Positions 2,756 through 17,248 of a stretch of DNA of 64,000 bases are shown in pieces (position 1 is the first letter of the stretch; each line of letters starts with the position of its first letter). The DNA comes from Streptomyces sp. AM 4-1-1 (GTDB lineage: Bacteria > Actinomycetota > Actinomycetes > Streptomycetales > Streptomycetaceae): assembly GCF_029167625.1 (NCBI RefSeq), contig NZ_CP119145.1:3906001-3970000 (forward strand). The letters are read 5' to 3'. Below the pieces are notes generated by a model. The model saw only the letters and a program-made list of their open reading frames with translations, did not search any database and was not told where the DNA came from. Made by a program: the position numbers and the translations under genes.

Positions 2756-3715
2756 CTACCGCCCCGCCAGGAGGCGGGTCACCGACCCGTTCCCGAACAC
2801 CTCCCGCACCGCGCTCGCGATCAGCGGCGCGACGGACAGGACCGTCACCTTGTCCAGCGAGAGGCCGCCCGGCACCGGCAGGGTGTCAGTGAAGACGAAC
2901 TCGCCCACCTTCGACTGCTCCAGGCGCGCCGCCGCCGGCCCCGACAGCACCCCGTGCGTGGCCGCGACGATCACCTCCTCCGCGCCATGGGCGAACAGCG
3001 CGTCCGCCGCCGCGCAGATCGTGCCCCCGGTGTCGATCATGTCGTCGACCAGGACGCACACCCTGCCCTGAACCTCTCCCACGACCTCGTGCGCCGTGAC
3101 CTGGTGCGCGACGTCCTTGTCCCGCCGCTTGTGCACGATGGCCAGCGGGGCGTCCAGCCGGTCGCACCAGCTGTCCGCCACCCTGACCCGGCCCGCGTCC
3201 GGGGAGACCACCGTCAGCCTGCTCCGGTCCACCACCGAACCGACGTGGTCGGCGAGCACCGGCATCGCGGACAGGTGGTCGACCGGGCCGTCGAAGAAAC
3301 CCTGGATCTGGTCGGCGTGCAGATCGATGGTCAGAATCCGGTCCGCGCCCGCGGTCGTCAGCAGATCGGCCATCAGCCGGGCCGAGATGGGTTCCCGGCC
3401 GCTGTGCTTACGGTCCTGACGGGCGTAGCCGTAGAACGGGACGATGACGGTGATGCTCCGGGCGGACGCCCGCTTCAACGCGTCGATCATGATCAACTGC
3501 TCCATGATCGACTTGTTGACCGGGGCCGTGTGGCTCTGGATCACGAAGCAGTCCGCGCCCCGCACGGACTGGTGGTAGCGGATGTAGATCTCGCCGTTGG
3601 CGAAGTCGATCGCCTTCGTCGGGACCAGCGTCGTGCCCAGCTCGGCCGCGATGCCCTCGGCCAGCGCGGGGTGCGCCCGGCCGGAGAACAGCAGCAGCTC
3701 TCTGCCGCCGCTCAC
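2756..3715 (-). CDS. prs: Ribose-phosphate pyrophosphokinase (PRPP synthetase) paralogue
   Basis: 319 residues; makes 5-phosphoribosyl-1-pyrophosphate from ribose 5-phosphate and ATP in the cytosol. The phosphate-binding YGYARQDRK, the LHADQIQGFF loop and the PRPP-binding VLVDDMIDTGGT are all intact, and the length is typical. The start is the GTG at 3715, whose GTGA overlaps the stop of the ene-reductase gene, so translation is probably coupled; a longer upstream frame runs inside that gene and is rejected. Streptomyces normally keep a housekeeping prs elsewhere, next to glmU, so this copy at the end of the NRPS operon is likely a pathway-dedicated supplier (inference). It would feed PRPP to the cluster's UPRTase or recycle ribose 5-phosphate released or used by the PsuG-like enzyme. 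Confidence 0.93.
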   Translation of the reverse strand: MSGGRELLLFSGRAHPALAEGIAAELGTTLVPTKAIDFANGEIYIRYHQSVRGADCFVIQSHTAPVNKSIMEQLIMIDALKRASARSITVIVPFYGYARQDRKHSGREPISARLMADLLTTAGADRILTIDLHADQIQGFFDGPVDHLSAMPVLADHVGSVVDRSRLTVVSPDAGRVRVADSWCDRLDAPLAIVHKRRDKDVAHQVTAHEVVGEVQGRVCVLVDDMIDTGGTICAAADALFAHGAEEVIVAATHGVLSGPAAARLEQSKVGEFVFTDTLPVPGGLSLDKVTVLSVAPLIASAVREVFGNGSVTRLLAGR

Positions 3716-4797
3716 GCGGCGTCCGTCCCGCGCAGGGTCGGGTAGTCGGTGTATCCGCGGTGGTCGCCCCCGTACAGGGCGCTCTCGTCGACGGAGTTGT
3801 ACGGGCCTCCGGCCTTGATGCGGTCCGGCAGGTCCGGGTTGGCCAGGAAGAGGGCGCCCATGCACACCGCGTCGGCGGCGCCCGACTCCAGGGTGTCGGC
3901 GGCCGTCTCCGGGCTGACCGGGCCCGAGTCGGCGGTGGGGTGCGGGTTGAGGATCAGCTTGCCCTGCCACAGTCCGCGCACCGCCAGCGTCTGCGGCCGG
4001 TTCGCGGACTCCATGACGTGCAGGAACGCCAGCGGGGGCAGCGCCTCGACCAGGGCCGCGTACAGCTCGGCCGTGTCGTGCTCGGCGATGTCGTTGTACG
4101 GGTTCGCGGGCGAGACGCGCATCCCGACCCGGTCCGCCCCGACGCGCTCGGCCGCGGCCTCCGCGACCTCGACGGTGAAGCGGATACGGGCCGCGATGTC
4201 ACCGCCGTACGCGTCGGTGCGGTGGTTGGTGTTGGCCGACAGGAACTGGTGCAGCAGGAAACCGTTGCCCGCGTGCAGCTCCACCCCGTCGAAACCGGCG
4301 TCGACGGCGCGCTGGGACGCGGTCGCGATGTCGTCCACGGTCCGCGCGATCTCCTCGACGGTCAGCTCGTGCGGGACCGGGTAGTCCAACGGGCCCTCGG
4401 GGCCGAAGCACTGACCGGCGGCGGCGATGGCGGAGGGGGCGACCGACCGGTGCGCGCTGGGGTAGAGGGACGGGTGGCCGATGCGCCCGGAGTGCATCAG
4501 CTGGGCCACGATCCGGCCGCCGCCGCGGTGCACGGCCTCGGTGACGGGGACCCAGGAGGCGACCTGCTCCTCGGTGTGCAGGCCCGGTGTCTGGAGGAAG
4601 CCCTGGCCGACGGCGTTGGGCTGGATGCCCTCGGTGATGATCAGCCCGGCGGCGGCGCGCTGACCGTAGTAGGTGGCCATGAGTTCGGTGGCCTGGCCGT
4701 CGGGGGTGGCGCGGTTACGGGTCATGGGGGCCATGACCATGCGGTTGCTGAGGGCCAGCTTGCCGAGGGTGACCGGTTCGAAGAGGTTCGAGGACAT
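3712..4797 (-). CDS. Old Yellow Enzyme family ene-reductase (NemA-like)
   Basis: 361 residues; an FMN-dependent NADPH ene-reductase of the OYE family, close in plan to N-ethylmaleimide reductase. Visible marks are NRMVMAPMTRNRA near the N-terminus, ITEGIQPN, AQLMHSGR, the substrate-activating pair in VELHAGNGFLLHQF, TDAYGG and the C-terminal ADAVCMGALFLANPDLP. The ATG at 4797 was chosen because AGGAGAA lies 8 bases upstream; the frame continues 48 codons further without a site. It follows the psuG-like gene after 121 bases and overlaps the prs gene by 4 bases. OYEs reduce activated alkenes such as maleimides, so it may act on a pathway intermediate or detoxify a maleimide product (inference). 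Confidence 0.9.
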   Translation of the reverse strand: MSSNLFEPVTLGKLALSNRMVMAPMTRNRATPDGQATELMATYYGQRAAAGLIITEGIQPNAVGQGFLQTPGLHTEEQVASWVPVTEAVHRGGGRIVAQLMHSGRIGHPSLYPSAHRSVAPSAIAAAGQCFGPEGPLDYPVPHELTVEEIARTVDDIATASQRAVDAGFDGVELHAGNGFLLHQFLSANTNHRTDAYGGDIAARIRFTVEVAEAAAERVGADRVGMRVSPANPYNDIAEHDTAELYAALVEALPPLAFLHVMESANRPQTLAVRGLWQGKLILNPHPTADSGPVSPETAADTLESGAADAVCMGALFLANPDLPDRIKAGGPYNSVDESALYGGDHRGYTDYPTLRGTDAA

Positions 4798-4918
4798 GGT
4801 GTCTTCTCCTGTGTACGAGAGCTGAGCCGCTGAAAGGTGGTGAGAGGCGCTGAAGGTGCTGAGAGGCGCTGAAGTCGCCCGGGTGAGAAGGGGGCCGGGG
4901 TCCGGAACCGGCCGGGCG

Positions 4919-5893
4919 TCAGCCGGTGCCGTGAGCGGCACCGGCGTCCCGCTCCGCCAGATGACGGCTGTGCGCGGCGGCCAGCCGGCCCGCGGTCTCG
5001 GCGCAGGTGGCGAGGACCGCCATGTTCGCCCTGGCCGACCGCCCGTCGGTGGCCGCGTCGACGGCGCGCATGAGGTACTTCGTCAGGCTCTGGCCCGACA
5101 CCCCGTCCCGGCCGGCGGCGGAGACGGCATCGCGGATGGCCGCGTCCACCTCGACGGAGTCGATGGCGTCCTCCTCCCTGACCGGGGTGGTGATGAGGAA
5201 GGAGCTGTGGTTGCCCAGTGCCCAGTGGTTCTCGACGGCGCGGGCGATGGCCGTCTCGTCGTCCATCCGGTGCGGGGCGCGGTGGCCGCTGGTGCGGCAG
5301 TAGAAGGCGGGGAAGTCGTCGGACCGGTGGGCGACCACCGGGACGCACTGCGTCTCCAGGTACTCCAGGGTCAGCCCCAGGTCCAGGATCATCTTGGCGC
5401 CCGCGCAGACGACGGCGACCTTGGACCGGGTGAACTGGACGAGGTCCGAGGAGATGTCGAACGTCTCCTGCGCCCCCCGGTGCACCCCGCCGATCCCGGC
5501 CGACGAGAAGAAGGGGATGCCCGCCAGTTCGGCGGCGACCACCGAGGAGGCCACGGTCGTGGCGCCGAGCCCGCCGTTCGCCAGCACCACCGGCAGGTCC
5601 CGGCTGGAGACCTTGGGGATGCCCGGTGTGGACGCGAACCGCTCGATCTCCTCGTCCGACATCCCCACGTGGATCGCGCCGTCCCGCACGCAGATCGTGG
5701 CCGGGACCGCCCCGCCCGCCCGGACGGCGTCCTCCACCTTCCGGGCGGTGGCCGCGTTGTCCGGGTACGGCAGGCCGTGCGTGATGACGTTGCTCTCCAG
5801 CGCCACCACCGGTCCGCCCTCGTCGAGGGTGGAGCGGACCTCGGGACCGAAGACGATCGGGACGCCGTCGTATGCGCGCATGGGATCTCTCAC
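4919..5893 (-). CDS. Pseudouridine-5'-phosphate glycosidase family, probable C-glycoside synthase
   Basis: 324 residues of the PsuG/IndA family. PsuG reversibly splits pseudouridine 5'-phosphate into uracil and ribose 5-phosphate; relatives in C-nucleoside pathways run in the bond-forming direction. Key family positions are kept: Glu33 in [11 protein letters not shown], Lys94 in [10 protein letters not shown], Asp150 in DISSDL and the Schiff-base lysine Lys167 in [12 protein letters not shown]. The GTG start at 5893 has GGAAG 5 bases upstream and overlaps the stop of the tautomerase gene (GTGA); an internal ATG four codons later is an alternative. Being in one operon with an indigoidine-type NRPS, it is either an IndA or the enzyme that attaches ribose 5-phosphate to the NRPS-made heterocycle. 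No fused HAD phosphatase domain is present. Confidence 0.9.
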
Positions 5894-6123
5894 TTTCGCT
5901 TCCAGTAGGCGGGGGCTTTGAGGAGCAGGTCCTCGCGCGCCTCGATCCGGTCGAGGACGCGGGCGGTCCAGTCGTCCGGCTCGATCGGCTCCAGCGCGAT
6001 CGAGATGGTCTCCTCGCCGGTCTCGAAGGCCGTCATGACCGCCCGGGTGATCGCCGCGTCGACGGCCCGGCGCTGCTCCTCGGTGAAGTTCCGGGGATAG
6101 TGCTGGATGTGGACATGGGGCAC
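5890..6123 (-). CDS. Small 4-oxalocrotonate-tautomerase-like protein
   Basis: 77 residues; a tautomerase-fold subunit. After removal of the initiator, the chain begins with proline ([17 protein letters not shown]), the catalytic base in this family, followed by the typical helix [15 protein letters not shown]. These proteins act as oligomers and catalyse keto-enol or related 1,3-proton shifts. The GTG start at 6123 is supported by AAGGAG 8 bases upstream. It sits 113 bases after the NRPS gene and is translationally coupled to the psuG-like gene. In this operon it may tautomerise the cyclised glutamine product (iminopyridone or aminopyrrole type) before C-glycosylation; this is inference. Confidence 0.8.
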
Positions 6124-6236
6124 GGCTGCGCTCCTTCGGATCGGGCGGGCGGATCAGGTTGTTACGGGGGCGCTCCTCCCGTCCCGGCCGTTGAGGGGGC
6201 CGGGAGAGGCGCCGCCGGTGGTGCGTGATGGTGCGC

Positions 6237-9200
6237 TCAGGTGGTGCGGGAGCGGATGGCCGACACCAGTTCGGTGATGCCGTGGTCCCGGAGGACCTGG
6301 TAGTGGTCGCTCTTCAGGTCGAGCACGGTGGGCGGGGTGGCCGAATAGCCGGAGTGCTCCTCGATGAACGAGTAGTCGTCACCGGACGCCTTGAGGATCG
6401 TCACGGGGGCGTCCAGCCGGCGCTCGACCAGCTCGTCGAAGGAGTAGTCGAACTCGTAGGTCGCGCCGACGATGCGGGTGATGCGCCGCACCATCCCCTC
6501 GTCGAGCGCCGGGAACGCGGCGTGGACGAAGGACACGAAGCTGTCCTCGTCGCGGGTGGCCAGCAGGCAGGCGTCCAGCGCGGGTCCGCTGATCGTCCCG
6601 GCGAACACGGAGAACAGGACGCTCACGTATCCGGGGTTGCGGTACGACGCCTCACGCCCGTACCGCCGTCCGTTCGCCTGCCGCACCTTCGGGTTGCCGG
6701 GGCACAGCAGCATCAGGTGCTCGACCCGCTGCCCGGCCCGCTCCAGCTGCCACGCGGTCTCGAAGGCCACCCGGGCGCCGAAGGAGTAGCCCCAGAGGGT
6801 GTACGGCCCTTCGGGCTGCACCCGGCGGATCTCCGCGATGTCGGCCGCCGCCATCTCGCCGATGGTGCCGTAGGGCACTTCGCCCGCGTTGATCCCGGCC
6901 GTCTGTATCCCGTAGAAGGTGCCCGGCACGTCCGACTCCCGGGCGAGCAGCCGCAGGTTCATCGGATAGCCGCCGAGGCCGGGCCAGCAGAACACGGGCG
7001 CCGCCGTGCCGCTCCTCTCGTGGAGGGGGATCAGCCGTGAGGAGGGTTCGGGGCTGTCGTCCTCGATCCGCGCCGCGAGGTCGGCCAGCCTGGGGTGTTC
7101 GAAGAGGATCTGGAGGGGCAGCGAGATGCCGAACTCCCGGTTGATCCGGTGCGTGAGCACCACCGCCACGAGGGAGTTGCCGCCGGAGGCGAAGAAGTTG
7201 TCCTCGACCGACACGTCCGCGTACTTCAGCGCCTTGCCCCACTCCGCGGCCAGCCAGCGTTCCACCGGGGTGCGGGGAGCGACGTGGACCGTACTGCCGG
7301 AGGCGTCGTTGACCACGTCCGAGGCGGCGAGCGCCTTGCAGTCGATCTTTCCGTTGGCGGTCAGCGGGAGTTCGTCGAGGATCAGCAGCCGGTTCGGGAT
7401 CATGTAGTCGGGCAGCAGCCGCGCCAGGTCGTCCCGGATCATCTCCGTCGGTCCGCGCATGTGCACCGAGTCCTCGCGCATCCCGGTGGAGCGCAGCTGT
7501 TCGTCGCTGACCTTCCCACCGAGGAAGAAGTAGGAGGGGCCGGAACCGATGCCGGCCTCGGCGAGGATGTCGTCGGCGCGCAGCGCGGCGGGCAGCGGGT
7601 GCCCGGTCTTCGAGGAGTAGCCCGAGGACATGAAGCCCATCCTCAGCCCGTTGCGTTGCAGATGGTGCAGCTTCCGGCCGAGGACGATGTACGAGAGCCA
7701 GTCCTCGGGTTCCCTGCTGACGGCGGTGATCCCGATGGGGGCGGACTCGTACACGCCCTGGTTGATCGCGATCACGTGCTTCTTCAGGACCGTGCGGTCC
7801 GAGATCCGCTCGAAGTCACCGCCGCGGTGGCGGTAGGTGCCCGTGGGCAGTCCGGCCACCCCGCCCGGGTGGGTCTGGAGGAAGATCTCGACCGGGTCGG
7901 CGGCCGGGCGGCCGTCGTTGGCGCGTATCTCGAACGTCCCGAGGTAGTAGTCCTCCTCGGCCACGTCCAGGAGGCCCCGCGCCGACGGGTCGAATCCGGC
8001 GGGGTGGATCGCCAGCCCGTACTCGGGCAGCACCTCCTCGAACACACCGAGCATGTGGCCGGTCTCGAACTCCAGCACTTCCTGGATGTTGGTCCTGTAG
8101 ACCGGTTCGATCGCCCGCTTCTTGCCGACGAAGTGCACCTCAAGGCCCTCGGGGGCAGGACATCGCGCGTCGGCGATCCGGACCAGCGTGTGGTCCAGGG
8201 GGTGGAAGTAGTAGACGCCCGGGTCGAGTCCGGCCACGCCTCCGGTCTCCAGGTACATCTGGGTGGCGTACAGCGCTCCCGGTGAGGCGTAGGAGTACTT
8301 CGGCAGCAGCCGTTCCTCGCTGTGGAACGGCCCGAACCACCTGAGGATCGTGCCGAGTTCGGCCTGCGTGAGGCGGTCGGTGCCGCGGGAGTAGGCGGGG
8401 GTCGTCCGGGGGCTCAGCAGCTCTCGCAGGTCGGCGTGGGAGACGCTGCCGCCCTCGTAGAAGCGGTACGTCTTCCGGGCGAAGACCTCGCGGCGCTGGG
8501 CGGGGGTCTCCTCGGCGCCGGGCAGCGGGACGGCGGGCCGGCCCGCCAGTTCCTCGGGGTCCCGTACACCCGCGTTGGACAGCTGGGCCTTGACCTGGAG
8601 CTTGTTGGTCTTCGACTGGTGGTGCGAGCCGTGGTTGCCCTGGTCCATCAGGGCGGCTTCCCTGGGGTTCAGCTCGACGCACGCCACCAGGTTCTGGAAG
8701 CCGGTGCGGGGGTCGTCGGTGACGACGGCGGCGGCCCGCTTGACCCAGGTGTGCTCCTCGATCGCGGAGGCGATCTCCTCCAGCTCCACGCGGTAGCCGC
8801 GCAGTTTGATCTGGGAGTCGGCGCGTCCGCAGAACTGGATCGTCCCGTCGGAGTTCCAGTAGGCCAGGTCACCCGTCCGGTACAGCCGTTCGCACGGCAT
8901 GAAGGGGTTGGTGACGAAGCGTTCCCTGGTCTGGTCCGGCAGGTTCAGATAGCCGCGGGCCACCTGTATGCCGCCGACGTAGAGTTCGCCCTTCTCGGCG
9001 ATGTCCACCGGCTGGAGGTTCTTGTCGAGGATGAAGCAGGTGGTGTTGTCGACCGGGACGCCGATGGAGACGATCGAGGCCGCCTCGTTCCCGGCGAGGT
9101 CGTGCGGGTCGACGAGGTGGGCCGTGGTGTTGATGGTGCACTCGGTCGGCCCGTACAGGTTGACGAGCGAGGTGTGCGGCATCTCCTCGGCGAAGGTGCG

Positions 9201-10088
9201 GGCCAGCGTGGAGCTGAGGGCCTCGCCTCCGGCGAAGACCCGCTTGAGCGAGGTGCAGGCGGGGAGCGATTCGGTGTCCAGCAACGCCTGTAGGAGGGTG
9301 GGGACGCACTGGAGCGTCGTGACGTCGTTCTTAGCGATGGTCTCGATCAGCGCCTCGGGGTCCCGGTAGACCCCGCTGGGGCCCATCACGACCCGGCCGC
9401 CGGCCGCGGGGGCGAGGATTTCCCACTGGGCGGCGTCGAAGCTCATCGGGGTCTTCTGGAGCACGGTGGTGTCAGGCCCGAGGTGCCCGCAGTCCTGCAT
9501 CCAGCGCAACTGCGAGACGATGCTGCGGTGTTCGATCATCACCCCCTTGGGGCGGCCGGTGGAGCCCGAGGTGTAGATGACGTACGCCAGGGTGTCCGAG
9601 CCGAGGTCCGGGCCGGCGGTGGCCGACGGCCGGGGGCCGCTGTCGGCCACGGGGTCCTTGTCGCCGATCACGACGACGGTGACGCCCGTGGCCGACAGCT
9701 CCCGGGCGCGGTCGGCCAGGTGTTCCTGGGTCACCACGATCCGGGTGCCGGAGTTCTCCAGCATGTAGCGGAGGCGGTCCTGCGGGTACTCCGGAGAGAG
9801 CGGCAGATAGGCGCCCCCCGAGGCGAGAATGCCCCAGGCCCCCACCATCAGTTCCAGTGACGGTTCGACGTAGAGGCCCACCGGGGTGTCCGCCCCGGCC
9901 CCTAACTCGCCTAGCCGATCGCCGAGTTCGTCTGCCGCCGCCTCCAGCTGCCGGTAGCTCAGCTCCCGGCCGTTGTGGACGACCGCCACGGCTTCCGGCC
10001 GGGTGGCGACCTGCTGCCTGAGCATTCCGGGCAGTCTGGTGTCACGGAGGCCGTTGGATCTCAGTCTTCCGAAGGTGTGCGTTTCCAT
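6237..10088 (-). CDS. Indigoidine-synthase-type NRPS (A-Ox-PCP-TE), copy 1
   Basis: 1283 residues, close to the length of blue pigment synthetase BpsA/IndC, with the same order. The adenylation domain (about 25-500; [46 protein letters not shown]) is interrupted by a flavin oxidation domain (about 550-830; [26 protein letters not shown]), then the last A motif [12 protein letters not shown], a carrier domain with phosphopantetheine Ser972 in ASGGNSL, and a thioesterase with Ser1102 in GYSFG. BpsA-type enzymes activate L-glutamine, cyclise it and oxidise it to 3-aminoquinone-like units that dimerise to indigoidine; in minimycin and showdomycin pathways a homologue supplies the C-nucleoside base. 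The ATG at 10088 is preceded by GGGGGGA; a GTG four codons earlier is possible. Codon 62 is TTA (9903-9905), so bldA dependence is likely. No phosphopantetheinyl transferase lies in the window. Confidence 0.95.
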
Positions 10089-10115
10089 GAATCCCCCCAC
10101 TACTTGGTACGTGAC

Positions 10116-11027
10116 TCAGGTGTGTACGGGTTGTCTGGAGTCGGCCTGAGGTTCGGCCGGTTTCGGACGCTTCTGCCGGGGCTGGGCGAGCACCACCGCG
10201 GTGATCACGGCCGCCGCACCCACGAACTGGAGGGCGGTCAGCGACTGGTCCAGTACGAGATAGCCGAGGACGGTCGCGGCCAGCGGTGAGGCGAAGCTCA
10301 GGAAGGAGACGGCGAGGGCGGGCAGCCGCTCCACGCCGCGGAACCAGATCGCGTAGGCGAACAGGGCGCCGATCAGGCCGAGATAGGCGAATCCGATGAG
10401 GTTGTGGCCGTTGACGCTGCCGGGCAGTCCTTCGCCGATCAGGGTCACGGGCAGCAGGACCAGCCCGCCGACGGTGAGCTGCCAGCCGGTGAAGGTCAGC
10501 AGGCCGACGCCCTCCGGTCTGCCCCACTTCTTGGTGAGCACGATCCCGGAGGCCATGCTCACCGCGCCCAGCAGACCGGCTCCGACGCCGACGGCGTCCA
10601 GTTCGGCCTGTGGTCGCAGGACGAGCAGCCCCACACCTACGACCCCGAACACGCTCGCCACCACGTGGACGGGTTTGATCTTGTCCTTCAGCAGCAGCGC
10701 CGACAGGAAGAGCACGATCATCGGCTGGACGGACATCACCAGCGCCGCGACCCCGCCCGGCAGGTGGTAGGCGGCGACGAACAGCAGGTAGAAGAAGGCG
10801 CCGATGTTCAGGACGCCGAGGACGAGCGCCCGCCACCACCACATGCCGCGGGGCAGGGTGCGGCCGACTGCCATCAGCACCAGGCCGGCGGGCAGGGCGC
10901 GGACCACCGAGGCCAGCAACGGCCGGTCGGGGGGCAGGAGTTCGGTGGTGACGACGTAGGTGGAGCCCCAGATGAGCGGGGCGAGAGCGGTGAGAGCGGA
11001 GTCTGTCGCGACTCGGTTGGACTTCAC
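10116..11027 (-). CDS. EamA/DMT-family exporter
   Basis: 303 residues, strongly hydrophobic throughout, with about ten membrane segments in two similar halves as in drug/metabolite transporters (LAPLIWGSTYVVTTELLPP, VLGVLNIGAFFYLLFVAAY, then AYLGLIGALFAYAIWF and FLSFASPLAATVLGYLVL). The start is a GTG at 11027 whose GTGA overlaps the upp stop codon; a longer frame upstream is the shadow of upp. It lies immediately before the NRPS gene. It is probably the efflux pump for the cluster's product, matching the transporter that accompanies UPRTase in minimycin self-protection. Substrate is inferred. Confidence 0.88.
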   Translation of the reverse strand: MKSNRVATDSALTALAPLIWGSTYVVTTELLPPDRPLLASVVRALPAGLVLMAVGRTLPRGMWWWRALVLGVLNIGAFFYLLFVAAYHLPGGVAALVMSVQPMIVLFLSALLLKDKIKPVHVVASVFGVVGVGLLVLRPQAELDAVGVGAGLLGAVSMASGIVLTKKWGRPEGVGLLTFTGWQLTVGGLVLLPVTLIGEGLPGSVNGHNLIGFAYLGLIGALFAYAIWFRGVERLPALAVSFLSFASPLAATVLGYLVLDQSLTALQFVGAAAVITAVVLAQPRQKRPKPAEPQADSRQPVHT

Positions 11028-11689
11028 TGGTGCACTGCCGAATCCGTTGTGCCGAAGAACCGGTCGCCGAAGTCGCCGATTCCGGGAACCATGAACGCGT
11101 TCTCGTTGAGACGGTCCTCGATCGCCGATGTGACGATCTTGACCCTGGGGTGTTTGCGGCAGACGGTGTGTATGCCTTCGGGGGCGGTGAGGAAGTTGAC
11201 GAACACGATGTTCTCCTCCCGTACGCCGGCGTCGAGGAGGACACCGATCGCGGTGAGAGCGCTGCCTCCGGTCGCGAGCATCGGCTCCAGCAGGAGTACG
11301 TGGCGCTCGGCGATGTCGTCCGGCAGGTGCGAGTAGTACAGGTGCGGGAGCTTGGTCTTCTTGTCCCGCTGGATGAGGATCTTGCCGATCCGGATGCCGG
11401 GGTGGATGTCCCGCAGCTCCGCCTCCATCGACTCGCCGGCCCGGATGACGGGGACGGCGCACAGCTTCGTGGCGAACGTCAGACCGTCGTAGGTCTCGCC
11501 GACGGGGGTGGTGACCTCGTGCTTGTCGAACGGGAGGAGGTCGAGGCCCGCTTCGAGCAGCAGGCGCATGATGCGCCGGGAGTAGAAGACGAAGTCCGCG
11601 CGGGGAGCTTCGCGGTCGCGGATGATGGTGTGCATGGCCCGCAGCTGGTTCGTCTGCGGGAGTAAGTGGACGTTGTGGCCGACGGTCAT
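11024..11689 (-). CDS. upp: Uracil phosphoribosyltransferase, cluster-borne
   Basis: 221 residues; converts uracil and PRPP to UMP. The PRPP-binding loop appears as LEPMLATGGSA, preceded by YYSHLPDDIAER, with the C-terminal uracil-binding region PGIGDFGDRFFGT; the length is typical. It starts with ATG at 11689. Codon 9 is TTA (11663-11665), rare in Streptomyces and usually found in genes under bldA control. The next gene (EamA exporter) overlaps by four bases. Streptomyces have a general upp elsewhere, so this copy is probably pathway-specific: in the minimycin pathway a UPRTase raises the UMP pool to compete with the toxic C-nucleotide. The same role is inferred here. Confidence 0.95.
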   Translation of the reverse strand: MTVGHNVHLLPQTNQLRAMHTIIRDREAPRADFVFYSRRIMRLLLEAGLDLLPFDKHEVTTPVGETYDGLTFATKLCAVPVIRAGESMEAELRDIHPGIRIGKILIQRDKKTKLPHLYYSHLPDDIAERHVLLLEPMLATGGSALTAIGVLLDAGVREENIVFVNFLTAPEGIHTVCRKHPRVKIVTSAIEDRLNENAFMVPGIGDFGDRFFGTTDSAVHQ

Positions 11690-11814
11690 GACTACCTGCC
11701 TGTCGTTGGACGGGGACCGGGTCCGGGCGCACGGGGGCCGGGGCTCGTGGCTCGCGGCTCGTGGCCCGGGTCCGGTACCGGGGCTCGGCTCGGTTCCGGT
11801 GGCGGGGTGGTGTC

Positions 11815-12498
11815 TCAGCCGATCTCGGCGAAGGCGAGGCGGGACTCCGCGACGAACTTCGCGACCTTCGCGCGGTCCTTGCGGCGGTCGGCGCCCTCCA
11901 GGCCGGTGTGCGCGTCGACCGCGGCGGGCCGTACGGCGCGGATCGCGGCGGCGACGTTCTCCGGGTTCAGACCGCCCGCCATCATCAGCGGCTTCGGCGA
12001 GCGGCGGACCAGCTCCGCGCTGACCGACCAGTCGTGGGTCAGGCCGGTGGCACCCTTGGCGCCGGTCGCGGGGTTGAACGTGTCGGTGATGAACATGTCC
12101 ACCGAGTCGGCCACCTCGTCCACGAGGTTCAGCAGCTCCTCGGCGTTGTCCTCACGGACCACCAGGCTCTTGAGGACGTACAGGTCGGGGCGGTTCGCCT
12201 TGAGCTTGGCGAGCTGGACCCGCTCCACGTCACCGTGGAGCTGCACCGCTCTCACCCCGAGCTGGCTGGTGAAGGCGCTGATCTCGTCGGCGTCGGTGAG
12301 GTAGCTGATCAGGACCCCTGCCTGCGGCGCCGTGAGTCCGCCGATGATGCGGGTGGCCGCCGACTCGGTGATGTCGTCCTTGCCGGACGGCAGGCGGAGG
12401 GGGAAGCCGAGCCAGTCCACGCCCTCCTCGACGAGCATCGCCGCCTCCTCGGCGTCGATGATCCCGGCGACCTGTACCAGATTCTTCACATCAGACAT
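11815..12498 (-). CDS. TrpF-like (phosphoribosylanthranilate isomerase fold) protein with altered active site
   Basis: 227 residues with the whole TrpF barrel pattern: AVQLHGD, ITDTFNPATGAKG, HDWS, MAGGLNPENV and a C-terminal DAHTGLE in place of DVSSGVE. The N-terminal catalytic motif K-I-C-G of TrpF reads Q-V-A-G here, so the general-base cysteine is alanine and the lysine is lost; the arginine-bearing S-K-R loop reads S-G-K-D-D. The aspartate of the L-D-T motif is kept (ITDT). Streptomyces normally have no trpF because PriA does both HisA and TrpF reactions, so this is unlikely to serve tryptophan synthesis. The ATG at 12498 has AAGGG about 8 bases upstream. It may bind a phosphoribosylated pathway intermediate and catalyse another isomerisation; function unknown. 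Confidence 0.85.
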   Translation of the reverse strand: MSDVKNLVQVAGIIDAEEAAMLVEEGVDWLGFPLRLPSGKDDITESAATRIIGGLTAPQAGVLISYLTDADEISAFTSQLGVRAVQLHGDVERVQLAKLKANRPDLYVLKSLVVREDNAEELLNLVDEVADSVDMFITDTFNPATGAKGATGLTHDWSVSAELVRRSPKPLMMAGGLNPENVAAAIRAVRPAAVDAHTGLEGADRRKDRAKVAKFVAESRLAFAEIG

Positions 12499-12678
12499 GG
12501 TGTTTCCCTTTGGTCCGTGGTGGGTGGGGGCAGCACGAAGTCCCCCGTGGCGGTGCTGGGTGTGTACCTGCGCGGATCAGGTGGGGCTGGTGGATCGGGT
12601 GGGGCGGATGGCGCGGCGGATCGGGGGACGGCCCGGGGGTGGCCCGAGCGGTCCGGCGGTCCGGTGGTCCGGTGAAGG
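12499..12678. other. 180-bp gap inside the leftward operon
   Basis: GC-rich spacer between the nitroreductase and TrpF-like genes with repeats of GGTGGTCCGG and CGGATCGGG type. No convincing promoter or gene was seen. It might hold an internal promoter for the trpF-like/upp genes, but nothing in the sequence shows it. Confidence 0.3.
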
Positions 12679-13353
12679 TCAGGCGCGCTCGGGCGTGTAG
12701 CCGTGGCCGTACGTGCCGTCGAAGGCGTTGCGCCCGAGCGGCCGGCGGCCGGGGTGCCTGCGGTTCTCCGCGGGCTTGCCGACCGGCAGCAGCAGCGCGA
12801 TGTGCAGGTCGTCGCGGTCCTCGATGCCGATGACCTGCTTGACCTTGGCCTCGTCCCACCCGTTCATCGGGGAGGTGGCGAGACCCATGGAGGCGGCGAC
12901 GATCATGGCGTGTGTGGCGGCGATCATGGCGTCCTTGATCGCGCACTCACGCAGCAGACCGCGCTTCTCCTGATCCTCGTAGAAATCCAGGGTGGCCTGC
13001 GGGAATCCGGCGATGTACTGGTCGTTCCACGCGCCGTTGCGTCCCGCCTGGCCGTGGATGTCGCTCAGATCCTCGCTCCACGCCCTGCTGGAGCCGACGA
13101 ACACCAACGTCACCGGAGCCTCCTCCGGATGCGGCTGGCCGCCGGTGGCCCAGGTGAGGCCGGAGCGGCCCCGCTGATCGGAGACAACGACCACGGAACG
13201 TGCCTGGATGTTGAAGCTGGAGGGTGCCTCCAGCGTCAGTTCCAGCAGTTCGGTGAGCTGGGCTGCCGGAATCCGGTCCGGTAGGTAGTGACGGACCGCG
13301 CGACGAGCGTGGATGGCCTGCGGCACTGTCAGTGGGGCGTTGTCCTCGGTCAT
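12679..13353 (-). CDS. Nitroreductase-family flavoprotein
   Basis: About 224 residues of the FMN-dependent nitroreductase fold: AIHARRAVRHYLPDRIP (phosphate-binding Arg-Arg-Ala-Val-Arg near residue 18), LELTLEAPSSFNIQ, the central helix AIKDAMIAATHAMIVAASMGL and IALLLPVGKP near the C-terminus. Such enzymes move electrons from NAD(P)H to quinones, nitro groups or unsaturated rings. The ATG at 13353 is taken; a GTG three codons earlier lacks a clear site too, so the message may be nearly leaderless. It is the first gene of the leftward operon and divergent from a MarR regulator, across a 144-base region holding five CTAAGG repeats. It could reduce or oxidise a pathway intermediate or act in redox defence. 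Confidence 0.85.
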   Translation of the reverse strand: MTEDNAPLTVPQAIHARRAVRHYLPDRIPAAQLTELLELTLEAPSSFNIQARSVVVVSDQRGRSGLTWATGGQPHPEEAPVTLVFVGSSRAWSEDLSDIHGQAGRNGAWNDQYIAGFPQATLDFYEDQEKRGLLRECAIKDAMIAATHAMIVAASMGLATSPMNGWDEAKVKQVIGIEDRDDLHIALLLPVGKPAENRRHPGRRPLGRNAFDGTYGHGYTPERA

Positions 13354-13374
13354 GACAACCACGGTAGAGGTGTT

Positions 13375-13490
13375 TTAGGACTAAGGCAAGGCCAATGCTC
13401 GACGCTAAGGTAAATAGTTGAGCGCTAAGGATGATGATCGAGACAACTTTCGGCGAGGCGATACCTCAACGCTAAGGAAGTCGACTAAGG
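13375..13490. promoter_or_regulatory. Divergent promoter with five CTAAGG repeats, probable MarR operator array
   Basis: CTAAGG occurs at 13381, 13405, 13425, 13472 and 13485, with a further TTAGGA at 13375. Most copies carry the longer form CGCTAAGG(A/T) or GACTAAGG. Six such words in about 115 bases of very GC-rich DNA are far beyond chance. The last one merges with the AAGGTGA ribosome binding site of the marR gene, so bound repressor would also hide its start. They are likely binding sites of the MarR regulator encoded alongside. Confidence 0.6.
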
Positions 13491-13497
13491 TGACCAC

Positions 13498-14001
13498 ATG
13501 GCTGACCACGTAGATCACGTACTGGCGCAGTGGGCGGAACAAGCCCCGGCGCTGGACGCCTCACCCATGGCCGTCATCGGCCGGATCAAGCGCCTCGCCC
13601 AGATCGTCGAGGGCGAGCTGCGCACCACCTACAACGAGCACGGGCTCGACGCCGCGGCCTTCGACGTACTGGCCACACTGCGGCGCAGTCCTCCGCCCCA
13701 CCGGCTGACACCCGCCGAACTCATGCGCGCGTCGATGGTCACCTCGGGTGCCATCACGCAACGGCTGGACCGGCTCGAAGGGCGGGGGCTGGTGACCCGG
13801 ACCCGCAGCCAGCTGGACGGGCGCAGCTTCAGCGTCGCGCTCACCGACGAGGGCCTGGCGCTCATCGACAACGCGCAGATCGACAACGTCGGGGCGCAGG
13901 GCCGGCTGCTCGTCGGTCTCACCCCCGCTCAGCGGGACCGGCTCGCGAGGGATCTCCGGCGCCTGCTGGAGTCTCTTGGCGACACCGATCAGTTCAGGTA
14001 G
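13498..14001 (+). CDS. MarR-family transcriptional regulator
   Basis: 167 residues with a MarR winged helix: AAFDVLATLRRSPPPHRLTPAELM leading into the recognition helix MVTSGAITQRLDRLEGRGLVTR, then the wing TRSQLDGRSFSVALTDEG. MarR proteins are dimers that usually repress a divergent gene and release DNA on binding a phenolic or oxidising ligand. AAGGTGA lies 5 bases before the ATG. It faces the nitroreductase gene that heads the ten-gene leftward operon and is followed by a strong intrinsic terminator, so it is transcribed alone. It is the obvious candidate for local control of the cluster, besides bldA. Confidence 0.92.
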   Translation: MADHVDHVLAQWAEQAPALDASPMAVIGRIKRLAQIVEGELRTTYNEHGLDAAAFDVLATLRRSPPPHRLTPAELMRASMVTSGAITQRLDRLEGRGLVTRTRSQLDGRSFSVALTDEGLALIDNAQIDNVGAQGRLLVGLTPAQRDRLARDLRRLLESLGDTDQFR

Positions 14002-14085: not shown

Positions 14086-14492
14086 CAGGCGCCAACCCCC
14101 CCGGGGTCGGTGCATGGCGCAAGGTAGCGCTTTCCCGCGTTCACTCCCAGCGCCTTATCGGCCAACCGCGCCGAAAATTGCGCCTTTCTGACAAGTTCGG
14201 TCTGCCGCCGACGGCTAAATCATCACAACTTGACAAGGTGGCCGTGCTTCCGCTTGGGGACTGTGTCAGAGGACTATGCCGGGCCGTCGTGGGGTGCGGG
14301 CCGCACCCGATCGAGTGGTGTGCCGTCCGCATCGTGGACGCGGTGAAGGGATTCGCGCCAATGTCGGTGCCGGCGGTCGCGCGTCACCGGGTCGGAACGT
14401 TCGGCGAGGAAAGGGCTGTTGGCGCCGGTTTCGGTGCGTAGTGATCGTCACTACCAGGTGACGTGCCCCGGCATCGGTAATTTCCCGAAGGA
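14086..14492. other. Non-coding region upstream of the chitinase promoter
   Basis: About 400 bases with lower GC than the surroundings in parts (for example the CTAAATCATCACAACTTGACAAGG stretch is near 14214). No frame in it has a start with a ribosome binding site and codon bias. TTGACA-like words at about 14230 could be an additional promoter, without a convincing -10 box. Confidence 0.4.
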
Positions 14493-14535
14493 TGGTCTAG
14501 ACCTTGACAGGTCCAGACCATCCGGATTGAGTACG
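14493..14535 (+). promoter_or_regulatory. Chitinase promoter with paired 12-bp repeats around a -35 box
   Basis: TGGTCTAGACCT (14493-14504) and AGGTCCAGACCA (14509-14520) flank and overlap a consensus -35 TTGACA (14504-14509). This is the arrangement known for Streptomyces chitinase promoters: 12-bp repeats that mediate chitin induction and glucose repression, similar in sequence to DasR operators. GAGTAC near 14530 is a weak -10. The gene starts 60 bases downstream. Confidence 0.8.
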
Positions 14536-14595
14536 GGGCACCCCCCATGGCGGTGTGCCGACTCGTGCGGTGTACCGCGCCGAAGGAGTGATCAC

Positions 14596-15510
14596 GTGTT
14601 CAGACGAATCATCAGCCTGCTGGCCGCCCTCGGGGCGGTCGTGGCGACGATCGTCGTCCTCCCCGCGACTCTCGCGTCCGCGGCGGTGGCCTGCACAACC
14701 CCCTGGAGCGCTTCGTCCGTATACACCGGAGGTGGCGCCGCTTCGTACAACGGCCACAACTGGTCGGCCAAGTGGTGGACCCAGAACGAGACCCCGGGCA
14801 AGTCCGACGTCTGGGCCGACAAGGGTGCCTGCGGCACCGGCGGCGGTGACAACGGCGGCGGCGGTGACAACGGTGGCGGCGGCAACACCTCGGGCTTCGT
14901 CGTCAGCGAGGCGCAGTTCAACCAGATGTTCCCGAACCGGAACCCCTTCTACACGTACGCCGGCCTGACCGACGCGCTGAAGGCGTACCCGGCCTTCGCG
15001 AAGACCGGCAGCGACACGGTCAAGCGCCAGGAGGCGGCGGCGTTCCTCGCCAACGTCAGCCACGAGACGGGTGGCCTGGTGTACGTGGTCGAGCAGAACA
15101 CGGCCAACTACCCCCACTACTGCGACGCCAACCAGCCCTACGGCTGCCCGGCGGGCCAGGCCGCGTACTACGGACGCGGTCCGATCCAGCTCAGCTGGAA
15201 CTTCAACTACAAGGCGGCCGGTGACGCGCTCGGCATCGACCTGCTGCACAACCCGTCGCTGGTCCAGACGAACGCGTCGGTGGCCTGGCAGACCGGCCTC
15301 TGGTACTGGAACACGCAGAACGGTCCCGGCACGATGACCGCCCACAACGCCATCGTCAACGGCGCCGGCTTCGGTCAGACGATCTGGGCCATCAACGGTT
15401 CGCTGGAGTGCAACGGCGGCAACCCCGCCCAGGTCCAGAGCCGCATCGACCGCTACCAGGCGTTCGTTCAGATCCTCGGCACCACCCCCGGCTCGAACCT
15501 GAGCTGCTGA
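14596..15510 (+). CDS. Secreted GH19 chitinase with N-terminal chitin-binding domain
   Basis: 304 residues; hydrolyses chitin outside the cell. The N-terminus MFRRIISLLAALG plus a hydrophobic run ending ATLASAA is a Sec signal peptide. Residues about 32-75 are a carbohydrate-binding module of the CBM5/12 type (rich in Trp and Tyr: NWSAKWWTQNETPG), followed by a glycine/asparagine linker (about 77-96) and a GH19 catalytic domain. The catalytic glutamate is Glu157 in NVSHETGG; YYGRGPIQLSWNFNY and WYWNTQNGPG are GH19 hallmarks. The GTG start has GAAGGAG 7 bases upstream. The promoter carries the chitinase-type direct repeats. It belongs with the chiF/chiG group and is unrelated to the neighbouring cluster. 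Confidence 0.95.
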   Translation: MFRRIISLLAALGAVVATIVVLPATLASAAVACTTPWSASSVYTGGGAASYNGHNWSAKWWTQNETPGKSDVWADKGACGTGGGDNGGGGDNGGGGNTSGFVVSEAQFNQMFPNRNPFYTYAGLTDALKAYPAFAKTGSDTVKRQEAAAFLANVSHETGGLVYVVEQNTANYPHYCDANQPYGCPAGQAAYYGRGPIQLSWNFNYKAAGDALGIDLLHNPSLVQTNASVAWQTGLWYWNTQNGPGTMTAHNAIVNGAGFGQTIWAINGSLECNGGNPAQVQSRIDRYQAFVQILGTTPGSNLSC

Positions 15511-15656: not shown

Positions 15657-16841
15657 TCAGACCAACGGCTTGATGGACATCAGCAGATGCCGATGCGTGC
15701 CGACACCCGCGTCGCCCGCGTCACCTCCGTCGCCCGCGTCACCCGACTTCGTACCCGACCCCGCTCCCGTACCCGCCCCCGTCGCGGACGCGGGAAGCCC
15801 GGTGAGCATCGCCCGCTGACCGGGCCCCGCCAACTGGAAGCGGACGACGGGCTCCTCGAACGAGGCCAGGGCGTCCATCAGGTACGAGGGGTTGAACGCG
15901 ACGGTCATGTCGGCGGCCCCCTCCAGGACGGCCGGCAGCCGCTGCGACGCCACATCGTCCTCGTACCCCGCCTGGAGAAGCACCGAGTCGCCCGTGAACG
16001 CGAGCTGGAGCGGGCTGTCGCCGTCCGCGACCACCGCGACCCGCTTGACCGCCTCCGTCAGCGACTCACGGTCGGTCACCGCCACCACCGGGTCGGCCAT
16101 CGCGAACAGCTTGTCGTGGCGCGGCAGTCGCCCGTCGAGGAGACGCACCGTCGTACGCGCCCCGGCGTTCTCGAACCCGGCCGATCCGCCGTCCAGCGCC
16201 ACCCGGACCGTGCCCGCCCGGCCGAGCGAGCGCGCGATCTCCGTCAGCCGCCGGGCCGACACCACCACGTCCGCCGACACGTCCGCCTCCAGCGGCTTCC
16301 ACGGCAGGGTGCGCACGGCGAAGCGGTACCGGTCCGTGGCCGCCAGCGTCATGGTGTCGCCGTCGAGGCCCAGCCGGATGCCGGTCAGCGTGGGCAGGGT
16401 GTCGTCCCGCCCCGCCGCGACCGCCACATGGGATACGGCGGCGGCGAACGCCTCCGCGTCGACCTCACCGCGCACCGGGGGCAGCGGTGGCAGGGACGGG
16501 TAGTCGTCCAGCGGCAGCACCGAGAGCCCGAACCGGGCACCGCCGCCCGTCACCGTGAACCGCGCCGCCTCCACCGCGCACTCCACCGGGCCGTCCGACA
16601 GCACCCGGCAGATGTCGAGCAGCCGTCGCCCCATGACCAGGACCTTCCCGGCCCGCGCGGTCTCCGCCTCGACCTCGACGCACGCCGACGCCTCGTAGTC
16701 GAGGCCGGAGATGCGCAGCGATCCGCCGTCCGCCTCCAGCAACAGCCCGCCCAGCACCGGGACGGGCGACCGGGTGGGAAGCACCCGCGCCGCCCAGGCG
16801 ACGGCATCGGTCAGTGCGCTGCGCTCGATCCGGAACTCCAT
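15657..16841 (-). CDS. DNA polymerase III beta-clamp paralogue (DnaN-like)
   Basis: 394 residues with the three-domain plan of the sliding clamp: MEFRIERSALTDAVAWAARVLPTR, LPTLTGIRLGL, ATDRYRFAVR, MTVAFNPSYLMDAL and a C-terminal HLLMSIKPLV that stands for the clamp's Y-L-L-M-P motif. The conserved proline of that motif is serine and a Gly/Asp/Ala-rich insert of about 30 residues (after LTGLPAS) precedes it. The gene is away from dnaA/recF, so it is an accessory clamp, as seen in Streptomyces. The ATG at 16841 has GAGAGG upstream. It may serve a specialised polymerase; target not evident. Confidence 0.88.
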   Translation of the reverse strand: MEFRIERSALTDAVAWAARVLPTRSPVPVLGGLLLEADGGSLRISGLDYEASACVEVEAETARAGKVLVMGRRLLDICRVLSDGPVECAVEAARFTVTGGGARFGLSVLPLDDYPSLPPLPPVRGEVDAEAFAAAVSHVAVAAGRDDTLPTLTGIRLGLDGDTMTLAATDRYRFAVRTLPWKPLEADVSADVVVSARRLTEIARSLGRAGTVRVALDGGSAGFENAGARTTVRLLDGRLPRHDKLFAMADPVVAVTDRESLTEAVKRVAVVADGDSPLQLAFTGDSVLLQAGYEDDVASQRLPAVLEGAADMTVAFNPSYLMDALASFEEPVVRFQLAGPGQRAMLTGLPASATGAGTGAGSGTKSGDAGDGGDAGDAGVGTHRHLLMSIKPLV

Positions 16842-17248
16842 GGCGGGCCTCTCGTCGGTCGGGTCGGTCGGGGACACTCCTTGTGCGTGCACCGACGCTA
16901 TGTGCCGCCACTGACAACGACGCCGCTGCCCGGGTTCTGGTGGTCGTGACGGCCCGGCCACTGACCGGCAGCCTCATCGGCTGACGCGCCCTGCTGGGCC
17001 GCCGGTCGATCACGACCCACCGGTTGACCGGTTGACCGGGGCGTCGGCCGATGGGACTGCCGGCCATCACGATCCACCGTCGCTCCCGCCTCGTTCGCCC
17101 CCGTTCGGCGGAGGCCGCATCCGTTCGGCGGAGCCCGCGCCGGATACGCGTCGTGTTTTGCGCGGTAAGGGAAGGGAACGCGCGGTAGGGCGCTCTTCGT
17201 CCCCGCGCGCGACCGAAAGCCCGCTCCACCCTGTGCCCCGGAGGCCCC
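16842..17248. other. Divergent intergenic region between clamp and P450 genes
   Basis: 407 bases with no gene seen. It contains CCGGTTGACCGGTTGACCGG-type direct repeats (about 17019-17039), a duplicated CCGTTCGGCGGAG (about 17101 and 17121) and a duplicated GCGCGGTA (about 17159 and 17179). These could be regulatory; no clear promoter boxes were found. Confidence 0.4.

What the first reader, a model, noticed from the sequence alone, without database searches (positions are those of the whole stretch)
2756..14001. Variant C-nucleoside-type biosynthetic cluster (minimycin/showdomycin logic)
Seen: ten leftward genes plus a MarR gene, with an indigoidine-type NRPS, PsuG-family glycosidase, uracil phosphoribosyltransferase, EamA exporter, tautomerase, NemA-like reductase, PRPP synthetase, TrpF-like protein and nitroreductase. 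Known, from memory: minimycin and showdomycin pathways use an indigoidine-synthase-like NRPS and a PsuG-like C-glycoside synthase that joins the heterocycle to ribose 5-phosphate, and minimycin producers protect themselves with a UPRTase and a transporter. Inference: this cluster makes a C-nucleoside. The TrpF-like gene, tautomerase and ene-reductase, and the lack of any phosphatase or DUF4243 gene, make it different from the minimycin set.
Basis: partly seen in the sequence, partly recalled or inferred. Interest (0 to 1): 0.95.

Follow-up and report, generated by a model that had tools for sequence, protein, structure and literature searches.

The report
C-nucleoside-type cluster: TrpF-like replaces phosphatase
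This Streptomyces gene cluster carries relatives of the pigment-making and sugar-joining enzymes of C-nucleoside antibiotic pathways, but where related clusters carry a phosphatase gene it carries an altered relative of the tryptophan enzyme TrpF, so it likely makes a differently finished sugar-linked compound.

Summary
The gene content is right, save that there are nine leftward genes, not ten, plus a divergent MarR gene (window 2756-14001). The block lies between purA and a chitinase gene; two relatives have other DNA there. PsuG belongs with biosynthetic, not catabolic, PsuG and keeps eight of eight key residues. A C-nucleoside product is inferred, not shown; published relatives are linked only to pigments. 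New here: a TrpF-marked branch. Of 42 NRPS+PsuG loci, 29 carry the TrpF-like gene and 13 the HAD phosphatase of minimycin-type clusters, none both, apart from one distant HAD gene in a TrpF locus; a Streptomycetaceae sample gives 14, 18, 0 both, 2 neither. The PsuG tree forces at least three changes of that label. TrpF-like has the TrpF fold but Ala for the catalytic Cys in 164 of 164 rows, keeps the catalytic Asp, and never has the anthranilate-binding Arg. Best reading: a C-nucleotide is made as in minimycin, then TrpF-like acts on it instead of a phosphatase. The same core is in print, unrecognised, on C. aurimucosum pET44827.

The parts
2756..3715 (-). Ribose-phosphate diphosphokinase (PRPP synthetase), 319 aa, GTG start, overlapping the end of the OYE gene by 4 bases
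   Evidence: NF002844 541.5 bits, over its cut-off; start codon
3712..4797 (-). Old-yellow-enzyme / NemA-like flavin reductase, 361 aa, with Phe where the three solved relatives printed have Tyr (HAGNGF)
   Evidence: PF00724 255 bits; PDB alignments; HAGNGF in 22 of 22 aligned rows, 19 of them distinct
4919..5893 (-). PsuG / IndA / MinB-type C-glycosynthase, 324 aa
   Evidence: PF04227 364 bits; E. coli YeiN 4gij 262 bits, AlnA 4ex8 253 bits; key residues kept; only PF04227 match in the genome
5890..6123 (-). 4-oxalocrotonate tautomerase-type protein, 77 aa, Met-Pro N-terminus; overlaps the PsuG start by 4 bases
   Evidence: PF01361 28.5 bits, cut-off 22; sequence
6237..10100 (-). Indigoidine-type single-module NRPS, 1287 aa: A domain split by an oxidase-like insert, T, TE; A-domain code read by eye as DAWQFGLINK (Gln)
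   Evidence: Pfam; insert matches SagB and BmdC oxidases weakly, nothing in Pfam; 217 relatives in genome contigs; PMC3992020 prints the same code for the glutamine NRPS of S. albus J1074
10116..11027 (-). EamA exporter, 303 aa, GTG start
   Evidence: PF00892 121 bits; start codon
11024..11689 (-). Uracil phosphoribosyltransferase nearest the Toxoplasma-type enzymes; overlaps the EamA start by 4 bases
   Evidence: PF14681 261 bits; 1upf 255 bits; a second UPRT lies at G000:C1:3381689
11815..12498 (-). TrpF-like (phosphoribosylanthranilate isomerase fold) protein, 227 aa, catalytic Cys replaced by Ala
12679..13362 (-). Nitroreductase-family flavoprotein, 227 aa, GTG start
   Evidence: PF00881 85 bits; ydfN 3bem 75 bits
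13363..13497 (.). Divergent promoter gap with five CTAAGG hexamers, the only five in the 64 kb window
13498..14001 (+). MarR-family regulator, nearest the solved MarR proteins 8ylf, 8ylh and 2fbk (PecS/HucR type, names recalled)
   Evidence: PF12802 55 bits; 116, 114 and 62 bits

Best explanation
This is a biosynthetic cluster of the NRPS-plus-PsuG kind that likely makes a ribose-linked aminopyridone (a C-nucleotide) and in which a TrpF-like protein is predicted to act on that phosphorylated intermediate in place of the phosphatase that the other branch of these clusters carries. Proposed steps: (1) the NRPS activates L-glutamine, oxidises and cyclises it to the indigoidine monomer, an aminopyridone (inferred from domain make-up and code); (2) the tautomerase shifts it to the form PsuG accepts (inferred from minimycin); (3) PsuG joins it through carbon to ribose 5-phosphate (inferred; key residues kept); (4) the TrpF-like enzyme, which keeps the TrpF fold and the general-acid Asp but has lost the general-base Cys and the carboxylate-binding Arg, binds the 5'-phosphoribosyl compound and probably opens its ribose ring (inferred, weakest step); (5) the ene-reductase and nitroreductase reduce an activated, quinone-like form of the product or detoxify it (inferred); (6) PRPP synthetase plus UPRT keep the UMP pool up, and EamA exports (inferred from minimycin self-protection); (7) the MarR protein, on an array of CTAAGG sites, controls the divergent operon (inferred). 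Shown here: gene content, the block's presence at a place where two relatives have other DNA, the exclusion of TrpF-like and cluster-type HAD phosphatase, and the active-site changes.
For: Exclusion: 29 TrpF-only, 13 HAD-only, 0 both of 42 NRPS+PsuG loci; 14, 18, 0 both and 2 neither of 34 PsuG loci from a 394-genome Streptomycetaceae sample. Label changes on the PsuG tree: 5 needed, at least 3 forced; window PsuG sits in one supported clade with HAD and TrpF loci. All 15 TrpF-like genomes of 394 have cluster-type PsuG within 7 kb. PRPP synthetase 17/29, OYE 15/29, nitroreductase 10/29 in TrpF loci against 0/13 in HAD loci, at the identity thresholds; DUF4243 0/29 against 5/13; second sample 8/14, 9/14, 4/14 against 0/18, DUF4243 0/14 against 3/18. 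TrpF-like: Cys7 to Ala 164/164, Arg36 to Asp/Glu/Asn/His in 165/165, catalytic Asp kept 165/165 rows, 153 distinct, while the genome's ordinary TrpF keeps Cys. In both distant relatives TrpF-like is the best-kept protein of the set: 66% to A. vitis, 54% to C. aurimucosum. PsuG key residues kept in 29/29 TrpF-type loci. Model and fold match.
Against: No product is known. The published relatives are linked to pigments only. The exclusion counts are not independent observations (related loci; at least 5 of the 14 sample loci are also among the 42). L060 holds a HAD-family gene (30% to the cluster HAD; PF13419) beside its TrpF-type cluster; I set the 36% threshold after seeing it. OYE is absent from 14 of 29 TrpF loci, so it is not an obligatory step of the branch; two HAD loci (L072, L075) have a 47-48% OYE relative within range, below the 55% threshold, and one HAD locus of the second sample has a MarR relative. 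In three genomes of a sister genus the NRPS is not beside the TrpF-type operon (380 kb away in one, on another contig in two), and a fourth (G199) has none at E<=1e-150. Loss of the Cys makes ordinary TrpF chemistry unlikely but does not say what replaces it.
Confidence: 0.5

Rival explanations
1. The cluster is in effect an indigoidine (pigment) cluster: the NRPS product dimerises to indigoidine, and PsuG, TrpF-like, UPRT and the flavoenzymes limit or recycle toxic monomer adducts and do not build a secreted nucleoside.
For: Papers link the same core to blue pigment (S. lavendulae) and black pigment (C. aurimucosum); driving the NRPS of a HAD-type relative gave blue colour. OYE and nitroreductase here, and DJ-1, FMN-reductase and mycothiol-dependent nitroreductase genes in L077, look like electrophile defence.
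Against: 40 of the 85 loci with an NRPS match have no PsuG within 11 kb, some of them on cut contigs, so the NRPS often does without these genes; PsuG keeps its key residues, and a UPRT and exporter accompany it, as in minimycin.
Confidence: 0.22
2. TrpF-like does not take the phosphatase's place: it works with its neighbour UPRT and the PRPP synthetase as a salvage or repair set, for instance releasing ribose 5-phosphate from N-phosphoribosyl adducts of the aromatic amine, and the missing dephosphorylation is done by a housekeeping phosphatase.
For: TrpF-like lies next to UPRT in the four plasmid records and within about 1 kb of it in the 14 sample loci; PRPP synthetase at >=50% identity occurs only with TrpF-like (17/29 against 0/13); the natural substrate of TrpF is an N-phosphoribosyl aromatic amine (general knowledge).
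Against: UPRT also occurs in 11 of 13 HAD loci, without TrpF-like; a repair function would not be expected to exclude the phosphatase.
Confidence: 0.25
3. It is an ordinary minimycin/oxazinomycin or showdomycin cluster whose last genes lie elsewhere in the genome.
For: NRPS, PsuG, UPRT and a transporter are shared with minimycin.
Against: No DUF4243 and no cluster-type HAD in 29 of 29 TrpF-type loci, so the absence is a rule and not one split cluster; the showdomycin cluster has dissociated NRPS enzymes. The rest of the window's genome was not searched for HAD or DUF4243 genes.
Confidence: 0.04

Closest known systems
Plasmid pET44827 pigment region, Corynebacterium aurimucosum ATCC 700975 (NC_010813, L083)
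   Same: Divergent MarR, TrpF-like, UPRT, NRPS, tautomerase, PsuG, EamA; the paper links it to the black pigment (PMC2830990, passages)
   Different: No OYE, PRPP synthetase or nitroreductase match; proteins 28-54% identical; the paper guessed that the UPRT and TrpF genes activate the NRPS
Blue-pigment genes inside the auricin cluster, S. lavendulae CCM 3239 pSA3239 (NZ_CP024986, L084)
   Same: TrpF-like, UPRT, EamA, tautomerase, PsuG, OYE, PRPP synthetase, NRPS; 59-87% identity
   Different: NRPS at the end of the operon, SARP instead of MarR, no nitroreductase match
Minimycin cluster (minA-D, minT), S. hygroscopicus JCM 4712
   Same: NRPS, PsuG, UPRT, transporter (PMC8724604 section 6)
   Different: Minimycin has MinC (HAD phosphatase + DUF4243) and a tautomerase domain in the NRPS; here neither MinC part is present, the tautomerase is a separate protein, and TrpF-like, OYE, nitroreductase and PRPP synthetase are added. 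The min sequences themselves were not in any collection call, so the comparison is by gene content
S. albus J1074 cluster 9 (indigoidine)
   Same: IndA, 4-OT tautomerase, NRPS with code DAWQFGLINK, transporter, phosphoribosyltransferase (PMC3992020 passages)
   Different: Has IndB and, in the passage read, no TrpF-like gene
Showdomycin cluster (sdm)
   Same: PsuG-type C-glycosynthase SdmA (PMC8724604 passage)
   Different: Dissociated NRPS enzymes, cyclase SdmE and phosphatase SdmB

Membership tests
Minimycin-type cluster | Single-module indigoidine-type NRPS for Gln | tested here: met
   Domains, oxidase-like insert (weak matches); code DAWQFGLINK read by eye
Minimycin-type cluster | MinB-type PsuG with key residues | tested here: met
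   MinB itself was not compared
Minimycin-type cluster | MinC HAD phosphatase | tested here: not met
   no match in the window; 0 of 29 TrpF-type loci at >=36% identity
Minimycin-type cluster | MinC DUF4243 (PF14027) domain | tested here: not met
   no match in the window; 0 of 29 TrpF-type loci
Minimycin-type cluster | UPRT (MinD) and transporter (MinT) | tested here: met
   UPRT and EamA present; that MinT is of the EamA family was not checked
Minimycin-type cluster | Minimycin produced | not testable with these tools
   needs metabolite analysis
Showdomycin-type cluster | Dissociated NRPS enzymes | tested here: not met
   one 1287-aa NRPS
Showdomycin-type cluster | Phosphatase SdmB | tested here: not met
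   no HAD match in the window; SdmB itself was not available
Catabolic PsuG | Groups with the PsuG common to Streptomycetaceae | tested here: not met
   219 of 394 genomes have a PsuG at E<=1e-60; the listing (capped) shows 69-84% identity for cluster-type PsuG, 13 places at 51-64%, and the bulk at 39-50%. No tree with the low group was built
TrpF (phosphoribosylanthranilate isomerase) | TrpF fold | tested here: met
TrpF (phosphoribosylanthranilate isomerase) | General-base Cys7 | tested here: not met
   Ala in 164 of 164 rows with a letter there; the genome's other TrpF has Cys
TrpF (phosphoribosylanthranilate isomerase) | General-acid Asp126 | tested here: met
   Asp in 165 of 165 rows
TrpF (phosphoribosylanthranilate isomerase) | Arg36 for the anthranilate carboxylate | tested here: not met
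   Asp 140, Glu 17, Asn 6, His 2 of 165 rows; the window genome's ordinary TrpF also lacks Arg in that aligned column (Ile), so this feature is weaker than the Cys
TrpF-marked NRPS/PsuG branch (pET44827-like) | TrpF-like, UPRT, NRPS, PsuG together, no cluster-type HAD | tested here: met

The most novel reading that the evidence does not exclude
The TrpF-like protein is a ring-opening enzyme for a C-nucleotide: it opens the ribose of the PsuG product, and flavin reductases trap the open form, giving an acyclic C-ribityl or C-ribulosyl aminopyridone phosphate. That would be TrpF chemistry moved from a carbon-nitrogen to a carbon-carbon linked sugar, and a product class not described in the C-nucleoside papers found here.
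Probability: 0.15. Interest if true: 0.85.

Novelty: new variant of a known kind. Interest (0 to 1): 0.6.

Why it matters
It defines a second, recurring branch of NRPS/PsuG clusters, found in actinobacteria and on an Agrobacterium plasmid, in which an uncharacterised TrpF-like family stands where the other branch has its phosphatase. It reads orf19 and orf20 of the published black-pigment plasmid as part of a ribosyl pathway, gives genome miners a one-gene marker for likely new C-nucleoside chemistry, and turns the function of a protein annotated as 'phosphoribosylanthranilate isomerase' into a direct assay.

Tried and rejected
Catabolic PsuG: rejected on identity groups and gene company. Plain minimycin or showdomycin: rejected on gene content. 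TrpF-like as a spare housekeeping TrpF: rejected, the genome has an ordinary TrpF elsewhere and the catalytic Cys is missing. OYE as self-protection against a maleimide product: considered because the best NCBIfam model is N-ethylmaleimide reductase (289.9 bits, below its cut-off 403); not supported further. Palindromic operator in the MarR gap: the best palindrome is no better than shuffles (355 of 500 as good); the direct CTAAGG array was found instead. Phylum sample of 396 genomes: TrpF-like only in the window's own genome, so that sample was of no use for the exclusion test.

Limits. The loci are seeded by the NRPS and are the best 80 of 217. One search's 165 rows are the window, 120 best protein hits (one of them, P0001, the window's own protein) and 44 loci; 153 are distinct, and they lean to close relatives. 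The 22 OYE rows are 19 distinct and are those that passed a coverage and stop filter; some loci with an OYE match (L052, L053, L096) fell out. The PsuG column of E. coli Thr130, also printed, is Ser in 28 of 29 TrpF-type loci and is not among the eight kept residues that I cite. ORF calls were mechanical. The NRPS tree is FastTree only. Residue roles for PsuG, TrpF and OYE, the PecS/HucR names for the MarR structures, and the positions of the A-domain code are recalled and come from no call; the code string itself is printed in PMC3992020.

Literature: that the TrpF branch is undescribed rests on searches in the open-access library only. The minimycin paper is not held; the showdomycin paper and the S. 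aureofaciens blue-pigment paper were seen only as entries in reference lists. PMC8724604: outline, section 6 and passages. PMC2830990, PMC13405713, PMC8910723, PMC10409956, PMC7917724, PMC10358988, PMC12701797 and PMC3992020: passages only.
Full report
What is there. Window 2756-14001 holds nine leftward genes and one divergent MarR gene. Three pairs overlap by 4 bases (OYE/PRPP synthetase, tautomerase/PsuG, UPRT/EamA; coordinates in parts, start codons), so translation is probably coupled. The left neighbour is purA (1281-2564, +), the right one a GH19 chitinase gene (14419-15510, +). In two related genomes purA and that gene lie 4.7 and 7.8 kb apart in the same orientation; blastn matches stop at window 2560 and start again at 14482 or 14620, and no cluster protein matches the DNA between. 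So the block sits where relatives have other DNA and behaves as a unit gained or lost; which, was not tested. The genome is 7.47 Mb in 2 contigs.

The enzymes. The NRPS has an A domain split by about 400 residues, then T and TE. The insert has no Pfam match but weak matches to the NRPS oxidase BmdC (E 0.00023) and to SagB-type dehydrogenases, as expected for the oxidase domain of indigoidine synthases. By eye its specificity code reads DAWQFGLINK, the code that PMC3992020 prints for the glutamine NRPS of S. albus J1074 (passages). PsuG matches E. coli YeiN at 262 bits and AlnA at 253 bits and, with 29 of 29 TrpF-type loci, keeps Glu31, Lys93, Thr112, His137, Ser147, Asp149, Lys166 and Asn289 (YeiN numbers; their roles are recalled). 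UPRT is nearest to Toxoplasma-type structures (255 bits); the genome has another UPRT elsewhere.

Which PsuG. In 394 Streptomycetaceae genomes 219 have a PsuG at E<=1e-60. The capped listing shows 69-84% identity for one group, 13 places at 51-64%, and the bulk at 39-50%. The window's PsuG belongs with the first group, which is the one found beside TrpF-like genes or NRPS and HAD genes.

The TrpF-marked branch. Using the NRPS I collected 80 loci of 217 relatives, added four plasmid records and the window's own short locus, 85 in all, and looked for each window protein and for a HAD phosphatase and a DUF4243 protein taken from L051. Loci with PsuG near the NRPS: TrpF-like only 29, HAD only 13 (5 of them with DUF4243), both 1, neither 2; 40 have no PsuG near. 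The two with neither are the window's own short locus L001 and the truncated contig L039. The one with both, L060, has a HAD-family gene only 30% identical to the cluster HAD. Leaving out L001, L039 and L056 (the same record as L084) and asking at least 36% identity for the HAD, a threshold I set after seeing L060, which then counts as TrpF-only, the count is 29, 13, 0 and 0 of 42 (Fisher p 4e-11, not corrected for kinship).

A second sample, not seeded by the NRPS. TrpF-like occurs in 15 of 394 Streptomycetaceae genomes, always with a cluster-type PsuG within 7 kb. I fetched the 14 other than the window and the 20 places with PsuG above 50% identity and no TrpF-like gene beside them. Result: 14 TrpF-like without HAD, 18 HAD without TrpF-like, 2 with neither (L117, L120), 0 both (Fisher p 9e-8). 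All 7 places with NRPS and PsuG but no TrpF-like have HAD.

Repeated exchange. On a PsuG tree of 43 rows the TrpF label needs 5 changes and well-supported branches force at least 3; window PsuG sits in a supported clade of 8 with 6 TrpF rows, itself included, and 2 HAD loci (L015, L018; 99/82). The UPRT tree (41 rows) gives 5 changes, 4 forced. A FastTree NRPS tree puts the window with L002 (no PsuG nearby), L015, L018 and L035, while the S. lavendulae-type NRPS falls elsewhere, so the NRPS gene seems to have been exchanged within the branch.

What goes with TrpF-like. In the 42 loci: PRPP synthetase 17, OYE 15, nitroreductase 10, MarR 13 of 29 TrpF loci and 0 of 13 HAD loci at the thresholds (two HAD loci have a 47-48% OYE relative); DUF4243 0 of 29 against 5 of 13; UPRT 29 of 29 against 11 of 13. 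In the second sample: 8, 9, 4 and 4 of 14 against 0, 0, 0 and 1 of 18.

Mechanism. NRPS, tautomerase and PsuG should give a phosphorylated C-nucleotide as in minimycin (PMC8724604 section 6). In HAD loci a phosphatase gene follows. Since TrpF-like and HAD replace each other repeatedly over closely related PsuG, and TrpF-like has a fold that binds phosphoribosyl-aromatic compounds, I infer that it acts on that C-nucleotide. With the acid kept and the base lost, ring opening without the usual Amadori step is the simplest guess. Flavin reductases confined to this branch could reduce the open, quinone-like form, but OYE is missing from 14 of 29 loci, so this is not general. In the 22 cluster OYE rows aligned a Phe stands where the solved relatives printed have Tyr.

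Regulation. All five CTAAGG hexamers of the 64 kb window lie in the 135-base divergent gap; the whole-window count is not raised (5 found, 6.4 expected), only their place is odd. The nearest MarR relative with the same layout, L035 (72%), has CTTAG/CTAAG motifs in its gap; the other eight gaps printed show TTCGA-type motifs instead (judged by eye).

Known and new. pET44827 of C. aurimucosum carries MarR, TrpF-like, UPRT, NRPS, tautomerase, PsuG, EamA; the paper ties it to the black pigment and suggested that orf19/orf20 activate the NRPS (PMC2830990 passages). S. lavendulae pSA3239 carries eight of the genes inside the auricin cluster, described as blue-pigment genes (PMC10409956 passage). The one paper found that holds both 'indigoidine' and 'phosphoribosylanthranilate isomerase' is the C. 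aurimucosum one. So parts of the cluster are in print as pigment genes, while the TrpF/phosphatase alternation was not found in searches. I rate this a new variant of a known kind.

Noticed in passing
window 13363-13497: All five CTAAGG hexamers of the 64 kb window lie in this 135-base divergent gap, all on the + strand; likely operator array for the MarR protein.
   Followed up: partly
G199 (L098): A TrpF-type operon (TrpF-like, UPRT, EamA, PsuG, OYE, PRPP synthetase) in a genome with no indigoidine-type NRPS at E<=1e-150; the source of its base is unexplained.
   Followed up: no
window 3712-4797 and 21 other rows: Cluster OYEs carry Phe at the position of a Tyr in solved relatives (HAGNGF), 22 of 22 rows, 19 distinct.
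   Followed up: partly
L073, L075 (Lentzea), L125: PsuG has lost the catalytic Lys166 (Arg in L073 and L075, Glu in L125); L073 and L075 also lose Glu31, Lys93 and Asn289, suggesting decay or a changed role of PsuG there.
   Followed up: partly
window 15657-16961: A DNA polymerase III beta-clamp paralogue beyond the chitinase gene; most of it lies in DNA shared with relative L126, so it is not counted as part of the cluster.
   Followed up: partly
P0029, P0049, P0066, P0086, P0113: Nearly the same TrpF-like protein (72-79% identity) in Shewanella, Pseudoalteromonas, Flocculibacter and Rheinheimera; P. rubra S4059 has a cluster called indigoidine at under 40% similarity (PMC7917724 passage; not necessarily the same strain).
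   Followed up: no
L064, L065, L071, L077: Core clusters that share neighbour families with L077, where Pfam names them alpha/beta hydrolase, DJ-1, FMN reductase and mycothiol-dependent nitroreductase: an electrophile-defence look different from OYE plus nitroreductase.
   Followed up: partly
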